A DNA stretch of 48,920 nt from Deinococcales bacterium (GTDB taxonomy: Bacteria; Deinococcota; Deinococci; Deinococcales; JAAFIG01). The translations under genes were made by a program, and so were the position numbers. The DNA lies in NCBI GenBank assembly GCA_013298595.1, contig JAAFIG010000034.1, positions 1-48,920 of the forward strand, read 5' to 3'. The notes beneath the pieces were generated by a model. That model searched no databases. It was not told the origin of the DNA and saw nothing but the letters and a program-made list of their open reading frames with translations. Positions 9,336 through 20,353 of this stretch are shown here, one piece after another. Positions within the stretch are counted from its first letter, which is position 1. Every line of letters starts with the position of its first letter.

Positions 9336-9375
9336 TAACGCAGGCTGGGCGATCACAAGGATCGCCCCTACGTTA
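9336..9375. repeat. Dispersed palindromic repeat, short copy
   Basis: This imperfect 40-base palindrome (TAACG ... CGTTA) has an inner perfect 8-bp stem GGGCGATC / GATCGCCC and an ACAAG loop. The right arm GATCGCCCCTACG matches the right end of the longer repeat inside dnaE (17521-17546), where the stem is GGGCGACC / GGTCGCCC. It stands between convergently placed regions in a 160-base gene-free stretch that holds nothing else recognisable. Confidence 0.75.
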
Positions 9376-9437
9376 AAATTGTGTCCTGTAGAGGTGAACT
9401 TCATGTTCGCCCTGCACAAAAATCTGACTCTCGAGTT

Positions 9438-16369: not shown

Positions 16370-19300
16370 ATGCCCGATAACCCCGCCACACTAAATCACA
16401 ACCTTGAGACAACACTAAAGCCTCGGCGTTTTGCACATTTGCATCAACACACGCAGTACAGCTTGTTGGATGGTGCAGCTCGAGTCAAGGATTTGCTCAA
16501 ATGGGTGGCAAAAACCAGTCCTGAAAACCCAACCCTCGCCATGACCGACCACGGCAATATGCACGGTGCAGTGCAGTTTTTTAAGTACGCTCAGGACGCT
16601 GGTGTCAAACCCATTATTGGCTACGAAGCGTATGTTTCGGCTGGCTCGAGATTTGATCGGATTCAACGCCGAGATGTGGATGGTGGGTACTATCATTTAA
16701 CGTTGCTGGCAAAGGATTTTAAGGGGTATCAGAACTTGTGTAAGCTTGCCAGTATTGCGTATCTCGAGGGGTTTTATCAAAAACCTCGGATTGACCGAGA
16801 AGTATTGGCTTTGCACCGAGAAGGCATTATTGCCATGAGCGGCTGCCTTGGTGCTGAGGTGCCAAATATGATTCTCAATGATCGGCTCGAGGATGCCGAG
16901 GAGCGCCTGAAATGGTACTTAGCAACCTTTGGTGACGATTACTACATTGAAATCCAAAATCATGGTTTGCCAGAGCAACAAAAAGTCAATCCTGTCTTAA
17001 AAGCATGGGCTACTAAGTACGGTATTGGTATGGTTGCCACCAACGACGGGCATTATGTGCGTCACGAAGATGCGTATGCTCACGAAGTTTTGCTGGCTAT
17101 TCAAACCAAAGCTTTGATGTCCGAAGAAAAACGATTCAAATTTTCGTGCGACGAATTCTATGTTAAATCCCAAGTCGAAATGGAAAAACTGCTTCCCTCG
17201 AGCGAATGGGGCGATCAGATTTATGACAACAGCATGGAAATTGCCAGTAAATGCAATCTCGAGTTACCGATTGGTTCTAAACGTGTGTACCAAATGCCTG
17301 CTTTGCCGATTCCTGAGGGGCGCACCATGGCAGAAGAGCTTCGGGTGCAAGTTTACCGAGGCACAGTGCAACGCTATCCAAAAGAATTTACCCTCGAGTT
17401 ATTACACGAATACGCCGCACTTTCCCTCGAGAAATTAGACAGTGCAACTCGAGAAAAGGTTTTATCCCGAACCGTAGGGGCGGGGCTTGCCTCGCCCTTG
17501 CCCAAGGGTGATGTAGTTCAGGGCGACCATAAAGGTCGCCCCTACGAAAAACGTGTTGAAAACTTGCATCTCGAGGATACGATTTTACTCTTGGCTTTTA
17601 TGGGCGAAATTTGGCTCGAGCAGTCAAAAGATCAGAAGTACACGCAGTACGTGGCATTGGATGCACTCGAGGCAGATGAAGCTGCTGTTTCAAGGTTGGG
17701 ACAAAGTTTGGTGGTGTTGCGTCGGGCGGAGTACGAACTTGGTGTGATTATTCGCATGGGTTTCCCAGATTACTTTTTGATTGTGGCAGATTTTATTAAT
17801 TGGGCGAAGGATCATGGGATTCGGGTTGGTCCTGGGCGTGGTTCAGGTGCGGGTAGTTTGGTGGCGTTTGCGTTGCGGATTACCAATCTTGATCCGATTG
17901 GCTATGGTTTGTTGTTCGAGCGTTTTTTGAACCCTGATCGTGTTTCGATGCCTGATTTTGATGTGGATTTTTCTGATACGCGGCGTAACGAAGTGATTAA
18001 TTATGTGCGTGATAAATACGGCGACGATAAAGTTGCCATGATTGCCACTTACGGAACCATGTCAAGTCGAGCTTGTTTTAAGGATGTGGCTCGAGTGCTG
18101 GAATTACCTTTTGCCGAAGCCGATAAACTCTCGAAACTTGTGCCAGTGGTGTTTGGCAGAGCACTCAGTCTTGAAGCTGCTGAAGAAGCTGTACCTGATA
18201 TCAAAGCGATGCTCGAGGCGAATCCCGAAACTCGTAAAGTGTACGAAATTGCAAAAAATCTTGAGGGGTTAACGCGTCACTCGAGTATTCATGCGTCTGG
18301 TGTGGTGATTGGTCGTGAACGCTTGGATAATATCGTGCCGCTGATGCGTGGTGGCTCGGATGAAGGTGTGGTTTGTCAGTTTGACATGAACAGTGTTGAA
18401 GATATTGGTTTAATTAAAATGGATTTTCTTGGGCTTCGCACCTTGTCTTTTCTCGAGGAAGCTGTGCGGATTATTCAAGAATCTAAAGGTGTTAGCCTCG
18501 AGCCAGATGATTTTCCACTTGATGATGTGAAAACCTATGAACTTGTCTCGAGGGGTGAAACCAAAGGGGTTTTTCAACTCGAGGGTGGTGGGATCACCGA
18601 TGCAGCACGCAAATTAAAACCTCGTCGCATCGAAGATATCAACGCGTTATCGGCGTTGTATCGCCCTGGTCCGATGGAGAATATCCCTGCCTATATCGAA
18701 CGGCATCATGGGCGCGAACAAGTGCGTTATGACCAAGGCGAATTTAACTTACCGAAATGCGAACCGTTGTTGCGTCCGATTCTCGAGGAAACTTACGGCA
18801 TTCCAGTTTACCAAGAGCAAATTATGCAGATTGCTTCCGCAATTGCAGGTTATACGTTAGGGCAAGCAGATTTGCTGCGTAGGGCAATGGGTAAGAAAAA
18901 AGTTGAAGAAATGGAAAAGGAACGCGTGAAATTTGTCGCGGGTGCTAAAACAGTGCATGGCATCCCCGAGGATGAATCTGCTCGTTTGTTCGGTATCCTC
19001 GAGAAGTTTGCTAATTACGGTTTTAATAAGAGCCACAGCGCCGCTTACGCATTTATTTCATTTCAGACAGCCTACATTAAAGCGCATTTTCCTGTTGAAT
19101 TTATGGCAGCACTGTTAACTGTCGAACGCCGAAATTCTGATAAGGTCGCCGAGTATATTTCCGATGCTCGTCAAACCAAACTCGAGCATGGCGAGTTAAT
19201 GCAGGTGTTACCGCCTGATATTAACCGCTCGAGTACCGACTTTAAGGTGGTTGGTGAGCAGATTTTGTTTGGTTTGTACGCAGTGAAATCCTTGGGTGAA

Positions 19301-20353
19301 GAAACCGCCAATGCGATTCTCGAGGAGCGTGAAAAAGCGGGTGTGTTTAAATCCTTAGCCGATTTTTGCTCGAGGTTGCAACATACTGGTTTGAATAAGC
19401 GTTGGATTGAATTTTTGGTTAAATCTGGTGCATTTGACGCTTTTGGTGCTCGGGAAGCTTTACTCGAGAGTGTTGAAGAAGCCATCGAATTTGCTAATGG
19501 TCAGGCGGATATGAATTCGCAAGGTATGGATAGTTTATTTGGCATGGCGACCATTGCGCCTGAACCAAAATTAAAAGTGATTGCACCACCCAAAGATGAA
19601 GAAGAAACTCGGGCTAGAGCTATTGCGCGTTTACAATTTGAAAAAGAAGCCGTGGGTTTGTACATTAGCGGACATCCACTCGAGCATTACCCTGGAATGC
19701 TCGAGGCGGCATCAACTAAGGTTGCTCAGGCAGAGTTGTGGTTTCATACCTCGAGTGCGCCTGTGGGTTATCGTGGGCGTAAACGGGCGGTACTGGCTGG
19801 CATGATTAGTGGGGTGCAACGTAAACCCACCAAATCAGGTGGCATGATGGCACGGTTTATTCTCACCGATGATGCTGGTGCTGCCGAACTGGTGGCGTTT
19901 AGTAGGGCTTACGATAAAATCAGTGAAAAATTGATTGAGGATAGCCCTGCCTTGGTGGTCGTGGAAATCGAACCTGATGGCGAAGAAGGTGTGCGTGTCA
20001 CAGTCGAAGAATTACTGCCGTACTCCGAAGCCAAGGATATGCCAAAAACCTTGGCACTCGAGATGAACCTGAATATGCTTGAGCCAACCATGCTTTCGCA
20101 CTTGGATGAAATGCTCCAAATGCAAGATGGTATTGCCAATATCCCAATTCATCTTCGTTTAATTGGTGATGATGCTTTTGAGATTTGGGAATTAACCCAT
20201 AAAGCCACCGATGCAACATTGCAACGCCTCAAACTCGAGTGTCCGTGGCTGAAAGTGGGTATGGGAATTAGTGGCGAAGCGGTGCTGGCAAAAACCATGC
20301 CAGCGAAAAAACCGTGGGAAGGTAAACCAAAAGAAGCTCGAGCGATGAACTAA
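16370..20353 (+). CDS. dnaE: DNA polymerase III alpha subunit
   Basis: This 1,327-residue replicative polymerase has an N-terminal PHP domain with metal ligands apparently intact (HLHQHTQYSLLDG, MTDHGNMHG, ATNDGHYV). The palm has catalytic aspartates in PDFDVDFSD (from residue 528) and GPGRGSGAGSLVAFAL just before it. Then follow fingers with YRPGPMENIPAYIERHHG and NYGFNKSHSAAYA, and a C-terminal OB/tau-binding region. E. coli DnaE is 1,160 residues. Residues 368-393 are encoded by an inserted palindromic repeat (17473-17546) without loss of frame. TAACAT lies 6 nt before the ATG (leaderless type). cruF starts one base after the stop. Confidence 0.96.
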   Translation: MPDNPATLNHNLETTLKPRRFAHLHQHTQYSLLDGAARVKDLLKWVAKTSPENPTLAMTDHGNMHGAVQFFKYAQDAGVKPIIGYEAYVSAGSRFDRIQRRDVDGGYYHLTLLAKDFKGYQNLCKLASIAYLEGFYQKPRIDREVLALHREGIIAMSGCLGAEVPNMILNDRLEDAEERLKWYLATFGDDYYIEIQNHGLPEQQKVNPVLKAWATKYGIGMVATNDGHYVRHEDAYAHEVLLAIQTKALMSEEKRFKFSCDEFYVKSQVEMEKLLPSSEWGDQIYDNSMEIASKCNLELPIGSKRVYQMPALPIPEGRTMAEELRVQVYRGTVQRYPKEFTLELLHEYAALSLEKLDSATREKVLSRTVGAGLASPLPKGDVVQGDHKGRPYEKRVENLHLEDTILLLAFMGEIWLEQSKDQKYTQYVALDALEADEAAVSRLGQSLVVLRRAEYELGVIIRMGFPDYFLIVADFINWAKDHGIRVGPGRGSGAGSLVAFALRITNLDPIGYGLLFERFLNPDRVSMPDFDVDFSDTRRNEVINYVRDKYGDDKVAMIATYGTMSSRACFKDVARVLELPFAEADKLSKLVPVVFGRALSLEAAEEAVPDIKAMLEANPETRKVYEIAKNLEGLTRHSSIHASGVVIGRERLDNIVPLMRGGSDEGVVCQFDMNSVEDIGLIKMDFLGLRTLSFLEEAVRIIQESKGVSLEPDDFPLDDVKTYELVSRGETKGVFQLEGGGITDAARKLKPRRIEDINALSALYRPGPMENIPAYIERHHGREQVRYDQGEFNLPKCEPLLRPILEETYGIPVYQEQIMQIASAIAGYTLGQADLLRRAMGKKKVEEMEKERVKFVAGAKTVHGIPEDESARLFGILEKFANYGFNKSHSAAYAFISFQTAYIKAHFPVEFMAALLTVERRNSDKVAEYISDARQTKLEHGELMQVLPPDINRSSTDFKVVGEQILFGLYAVKSLGEETANAILEEREKAGVFKSLADFCSRLQHTGLNKRWIEFLVKSGAFDAFGAREALLESVEEAIEFANGQADMNSQGMDSLFGMATIAPEPKLKVIAPPKDEEETRARAIARLQFEKEAVGLYISGHPLEHYPGMLEAASTKVAQAELWFHTSSAPVGYRGRKRAVLAGMISGVQRKPTKSGGMMARFILTDDAGAAELVAFSRAYDKISEKLIEDSPALVVVEIEPDGEEGVRVTVEELLPYSEAKDMPKTLALEMNLNMLEPTMLSHLDEMLQMQDGIANIPIHLRLIGDDAFEIWELTHKATDATLQRLKLECPWLKVGMGISGEAVLAKTMPAKKPWEGKPKEARAMN
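17473..17546. repeat. Palindromic (REP/MITE-like) repeat inserted in dnaE
   Basis: This 74-base element has perfect 10-bp terminal inverted repeats, CGTAGGGGCG and CGCCCCTACG. Inside are three hairpins: GGGCG / CGCCC, CCCTTG-CC-CAAGGG and GGGCGACC / GGTCGCCC. It is read through in frame as GAGLASPLPKGD ... GDHKGRPY, a peptide type produced by related dispersed repeats in many bacteria. A shorter relative is at 9336-9375. Confidence 0.85.

What the first reader, a model, noticed from the sequence alone, without database searches (positions are those of the whole stretch)
17473..17546. Palindromic repeat inserted in frame inside the replicative polymerase gene
A 74-base element with perfect 10-bp terminal inverted repeats and three inner hairpins is translated as residues 368-393 of DnaE (GAGLASPLPKGD...GDHKGRPY). 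It lies between the PHP and palm regions, so the essential enzyme tolerates a repeat-derived loop. This is a clear case of a repeat element creating new protein sequence.
Basis: partly seen in the sequence, partly recalled or inferred. Interest (0 to 1): 0.7.

Follow-up and report, generated by a model that had tools for sequence, protein, structure and literature searches.

The report
Mobile hairpin repeat inside DNA polymerase
A small mobile DNA hairpin has inserted into the gene for an uncultured Deinococcales bacterium's main DNA-copying enzyme and is read as about two dozen extra amino acids; this is a known type of event, but here the same repeat also sits in several other conserved genes and in the transposases thought to move it.

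Summary
Window 17474-17545 is a head-to-head pair of two GTAG-tagged REP hairpins (repetitive extragenic palindromes) with a 23-nt spacer, read in frame in single-copy dnaE (16370-20353). The genome holds 71 exact units of this family at 59 places (reversed-pattern control 0). DnaE of all sampled relatives outside the genus lacks the insert (net +23 residues here). The only sampled congener shares it with identical junctions, but the inside has diverged and grown by 25 codons. So it entered in the genus ancestor and is a loop with little sequence constraint (AlphaFold pLDDT below 50 for residues 375-391, between two helices). At least seven more genes carry in-frame copies: purL, ileS, metH, an XdhC-YHS fusion, a DUF5682 gene and two REP-associated tyrosine transposases (RAYTs). 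Most sampled family RAYTs carry a REP-like insert between the HUH and Tyr parts. Best reading: RAYT-mobilised REPs land at random, and selection keeps in-frame copies in tolerant loops. Intragenic GTAG REPs are known (Di Nocera 2013, including a REP element in Rickettsia conorii DnaE), so the kind is known. New here: the phylum, the number of decorated conserved genes, RAYTs carrying REPs, and a nested 39-nt hairpin repeat.

The parts
16370..20353 (+). dnaE, replicative DNA polymerase III alpha, 1327 aa
   Evidence: PHP, DNA_pol3_alpha, finger, HHH and OB domains; best solved relative is a DNA polymerase III alpha (entry 2hpi)
17474..17497 (+). REP unit 1 (type A): GTAG tag plus hairpin GGGCGGGG-CTTG-CCTCGCCC; read as VGAGLASP
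   Evidence: same 24-mer at many places in the genome
17498..17520 (.). 23-nt spacer with a weak stem; this spacer is not seen between other REP pairs
17521..17545 (-). REP unit 2 (type B), inverted: GTAGGGGCGACCTTTATGGTCGCCC; read on + as GDHKGRPY
   Evidence: perfect 8-bp stem
17477..17545 (+). 69-nt net insertion (23 codons) relative to dnaE of relatives outside the genus; exact ends uncertain by a few bases
   Evidence: protein and DNA alignments with G001, G002, G003
9347..9414 (.). another REP pair in the window: exact type B unit on - (9347-9371) and a degenerate unit on + (9390-9414), GTAG tags facing inward

Best explanation
A GTAG-REP doublet, a non-autonomous hairpin element most likely mobilised on single-stranded DNA by the RAYT/TnpA_REP transposases in the same genomes, inserted into dnaE in the common ancestor of this species and its congener. 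It landed in a tolerant loop between the PHP domain and the polymerase core, and by chance added a multiple of three bases in an open frame, so it was kept. The ribosome reads it as about 23-24 extra, probably unstructured residues. Afterwards the insert drifted in length and sequence while its hairpin ends were kept. Shown: the element, its family, its frame, its absence outside the genus, its divergence within the genus, other in-frame copies, and RAYT genes. Inferred: RAYT-driven movement, translation of the insert, near-neutrality.
For: 71 exact units at 59 places, control 0. The same pattern is abundant in the three other sampled family members (191, 139, 27 hits) and near background in most other order relatives. 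The insert is absent from DnaE of G002, G003 and the more distant relatives, and present in G001 with identical junctions CCCGAACC|GTAGGGGCG and CGCCCCTAC|GAAAAAC. In G001 the insert differs by 25 codons while the flanks are about 90% identical. Residues 375-391 have pLDDT below 50, in a coil between helices 358-370 and 391-396. In-frame copies also occur in purL, ileS, metH, DUF5682, XdhC-YHS and two RAYTs. RAYT genes match NF047646 in two stretches on either side of an insert, and one has a REP directly upstream and another downstream.
Against: No recently empty dnaE site is available, so exact ends and target sequence are not fixed. RAYT scores are below the curated NCBIfam cut-off (54.9 and 59.9 against 80), which the inserts would explain. 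Movement and translation are not observed. Low pLDDT is expected wherever the alignment has no homologous residues.
Confidence: 0.85

Rival explanations
1. The insert was co-opted and now matters for DnaE (for example a partner contact or tuning of fidelity), as Di Nocera et al. speculated for REP-decorated replication and repair proteins.
For: Kept in both genus members; REPs in replication and repair genes are reported repeatedly (PMC3733652).
Against: Length 24 against about 49 residues and a changed peptide between two species whose flanks are about 90% identical; other host genes are metabolic (purL, metH) or tRNA charging (ileS), so there is no functional theme.
Confidence: 0.06
2. The element acts at nucleic acid level inside the gene (mRNA hairpin that slows translation between domains or protects mRNA, or a DNA site for a host protein) and the peptide is a by-product.
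For: Very stable hairpins; in unit 2 one stem pair differs from G001 on both sides (GACC/GGTC against GAAC/GTTC), keeping the stem.
Against: Both stem types exist elsewhere in the genome, so conversion from another copy or template switching explains the double change; one pair is little evidence.
Confidence: 0.08
3. Assembly or binning artefact, or a conserved DnaE loop that only looks like the repeat.
For: The window is from a draft genome of 68 contigs.
Against: An independent assembly of another species has the insert at the same site; the loop is absent outside the genus; the repeat is at 59 places.
Confidence: 0.01

Closest known systems
GTAG-tagged REPs (Di Nocera, De Gregorio, Rocco 2013, PMC3733652), intragenic class
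   Same: GTAG at one end outside the stem, 8-bp stem, short loop, head-to-head dimers, dispersed copies, RAYT genes, in-frame copies encoding 20-30 residues in conserved genes, including replication and repair genes
   Different: That paper does not mention Deinococcus or Thermus; here REPs also sit inside RAYT genes, and a second 39-nt hairpin repeat sits in some REP loops
Rickettsia palindromic elements (RPE), including the REP element in R. conorii dnaE
   Same: Palindromic repeats inserted in frame in many conserved genes, including dnaE (PMC3733652)
   Different: Different phylum; the R. conorii intragenic repeats counted in that paper are CGTC REPs, a superfamily with no associated transposase, not GTAG REPs
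REPIN / BIME with RAYT (REPtron)
   Same: Two REPs in inverted orientation; a RAYT gene with REPs next to it
   Different: The dnaE spacer is not shared with other pairs, and only 8 of 59 places hold two or more exact units within 250 bp

Membership tests
GTAG REP superfamily | GTAG at one end, outside the hairpin stem | tested here: met
   both dnaE units and, by the pattern used, all 71 exact units
GTAG REP superfamily | stem 5-13 bp, loop 2-20 | tested here: met
   8-bp stems, loops of 4-5 nt in dnaE
GTAG REP superfamily | dispersed, multi-copy | tested here: met
   59 places, control 0
GTAG REP superfamily | association with RAYT genes | tested here: met
   two RAYT genes with REPs inside, one also with a REP upstream of the start and one downstream; profile score below the curated cut-off because the match is split
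GTAG REP superfamily | mobilised by RAYT | not testable with these tools
   needs a cleavage or transposition assay
REPIN (mobile REP doublet) | doublet with conserved spacer moving as one unit | tested here: not met
   the dnaE spacer does not recur between other pairs among the fetched loci
Rickettsia palindromic element | in-frame palindromic insertion in conserved genes | tested here: met
   at least eight genes
Rickettsia palindromic element | RPE sequence families of Rickettsia | not tested
   no RPE sequences were compared; a different superfamily (GTAG) fits, so it is not filed here

The most novel reading that the evidence does not exclude
In this Deinococcales family REPs act as in-frame protein remodellers: they recurrently enter the same tolerant loops of conserved enzymes, and a loop in most sampled RAYTs carries a REP-derived insert, so the transposase carries its own substrate in its coding sequence, which could give feedback (a RAYT that cuts its own gene's REP, or whose mRNA folds into its substrate).
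Probability: 0.15. Interest if true: 0.65.

Novelty: new member of a known kind. Interest (0 to 1): 0.42.

Why it matters
It shows an otherwise non-coding mobile hairpin adding residues to the enzyme that copies the chromosome, with a dated branch (before the split of two congeners) and a record of how the peptide then drifted. With purL, ileS, metH and the RAYTs as parallel cases, this family gives a set in which the fate of transposon-derived protein segments can be followed between related species.

Tried and rejected
Conserved DnaE loop: rejected, absent outside the genus. Chance palindrome: rejected. IS200-type TnpA on C14 as the mobiliser: not chosen; it is a strong full-length Y1_Tnp match and its nearest exact REP unit is about 8 kb away, while two RAYTs with REPs were found. 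The first PF01797 genome search missed those RAYTs, because the inserts split the match. A clean empty site to fix ends and target: looked for in purL, purD/M and ileS against G001; those sites are either also filled or degraded, so ends stay uncertain by a few bases. Literature on REPs in Deinococcota: RepRanger (PMC12306157) lists predicted REP counts for some Deinococcota; nothing intragenic found for this phylum in the library searched.

Full report
What is there. The window is contig C28 of a 4.58-Mb draft genome; the nearest named relative of its DnaE is from an uncultured Deinococcales bacterium, 90% identical. The 1,327-codon ORF 16370-20353 is DnaE: PHP, polymerase, finger, HHH and OB domains, best solved relative the Pol III alpha of entry 2hpi. 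At 17473-17546 are perfect 10-nt inverted repeats. Read as units, this is a + strand hairpin GTAG-GGGCGGGG-CTTG-CCTCGCCC (17474-17497), a 23-nt spacer, and a - strand hairpin GTAG-GGGCGACC-TTTAT-GGTCGCCC (17521-17545). RNA folding z is -4.84 with 0 of 200 shuffles as stable.

It is a repeat family. The pattern GTAGGGGCGN{4,14}CGCCC has 76 hits in the genome and 0 for the reversed control; merging the two strands of self-palindromic copies leaves 71 units at 59 places. Two unit types recur: A (24 nt, GAGGCATGCCTC-like, 30 copies counted, mostly preceded by CC) and B (25-26 nt, GACCCTTGTGGTC-like, 34 counted, mostly preceded by T-rich sequence and followed by TG). The dnaE copy joins one A and one B unit, tags outward. 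The pattern has 191, 139 and 27 hits in the congener and two other family members, 49 and 30 in two same-order genomes, and 15 or fewer in the rest.

It is an insertion. Between a conserved Arg and Leu-Glu, DnaE of G003, G008 and G012 has 10 residues and G002 about as many; this DnaE has 33: net +23 codons (69 nt), with residues TV and EKRVENLH matching the old ten by length. The congener G001 has the same junctions, CCCGAACC|GTAGGGGCG and CGCCCCTAC|GAAAAAC, so this is one insertion in the genus ancestor. Its inside has changed: the spacer is longer, the loop of unit 2 holds a 39-nt second hairpin repeat, and one stem pair of unit 2 differs on both sides. The total is 25 codons longer, still in frame, while flanking protein is about 90% identical. 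This is the picture of a segment whose length and peptide hardly matter.

Where it sits. In an AlphaFold model of residues 1-690 (mean pLDDT 85.6) residues 375-391 are below 50 and form coil between helix 358-370 and helices 391-396/401-418. The alignment had no homologous residues there, so low confidence is partly expected.

Other in-frame copies. Stop-to-stop ORFs across each REP, domain searches and alignments show REPs in frame inside purL (three places with exact units plus one with the 39-nt repeat), ileS (insert shared with G001, absent in G002 and G003), metH (linker between homocysteine and pterin domains), a DUF5682 gene, and an XdhC-YHS fusion. Two RAYT genes, C66 and C2, carry REPs in frame between the HUH motif (MPNHIH, MPDHVH) and the Tyr helix. 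RAYT genes of G001, G002 and G003 match the RAYT profile in split stretches, and most carry GTAGGGGC or its complement in that same gap; in one of G002's the gap holds no exact tag. That makes at least 10 of 59 places in at least 8 genes; other places were not each proven intergenic. Since most of a bacterial genome is coding, this is depletion from genes, with in-frame survivors: the pattern expected from random landing and purifying selection (inference).

Mechanism. REPs with GTAG tags are thought to be moved as single-stranded DNA by RAYT/TnpA_REP, for which the tag takes part in choosing the cleavage site (PMC8266576; PMC3733652). RAYT genes are present here, one with a REP just upstream of its likely start and another downstream. 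I therefore infer RAYT-driven insertion into dnaE. The consensus unit is open in two of three forward frames and all three reverse frames (read directly from the sequence), which makes in-frame survival easier. Translation of the insert is inferred from the intact frame of a single-copy essential gene; nothing here measures it.

Comparison. Di Nocera et al. 2013 described intragenic GTAG and CGTC REPs encoding 20-30 residues, often dimers, many in replication and repair genes, and a REP element in the DnaE of Rickettsia conorii. So kind and even host gene are known. That paper does not mention Deinococcus or Thermus, and I found no report of intragenic REPs in this phylum in the library searched, which is a limited library.

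Side finding. A dispersed hairpin repeat of about 39 nt (GACC..GCCCGTCAGGTGC..GGTCAAGA..GC) has 20, 63, 13 and 23 hits in the four genomes G000-G003. In 14 of 71 copies the joined flanks form a stem of 6 bp or more around the insertion point, against 3.2% for shuffled flanks; most of these are REP hairpins, one of them in dnaE of G001. Copies are related to each other, and the flank shuffle does not correct for that.

Noticed in passing
window, whole; also loci of G000-G003, G012: The palindrome CTCGAG occurs 318 times in 48,920 bp (9.5 expected from base composition), 6.5-8.8 per kb in family members and one same-order genome, 1.9 per kb in Trueperaceae/Meiothermus loci; it resembles the HIP1 case of cyanobacteria. 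In dnaE 21 of 32 copies are in the codon phase Leu-Glu.
   Followed up: partly
L126, L101, L216, L280, L288, L304 and others: A second dispersed hairpin repeat of about 39 nt often sits in the loop of REP hairpins, and tandem copies occur (G000 C56:44158-44287).
   Followed up: partly
L201:2190-2954, L209:1315-2010, L237, L242, L246, L247: RAYT transposases of this family carry REP-derived sequence in frame between the HUH motif and the Tyr helix, in several species.
   Followed up: partly
G001:C409 and several same-order genomes: DnaE of the congener and others is interrupted at query residue about 886-902 by several hundred in-frame residues, the size of an intein; the window's DnaE lacks it.
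   Followed up: no
window 9347-9414: A second REP pair in the window, tags facing inward, one unit degenerate.
   Followed up: no
L101:7700-8400: Cluster of four or five REP units between the purD/purM fusion and purB, partly differing from the congener by whole units.
   Followed up: no
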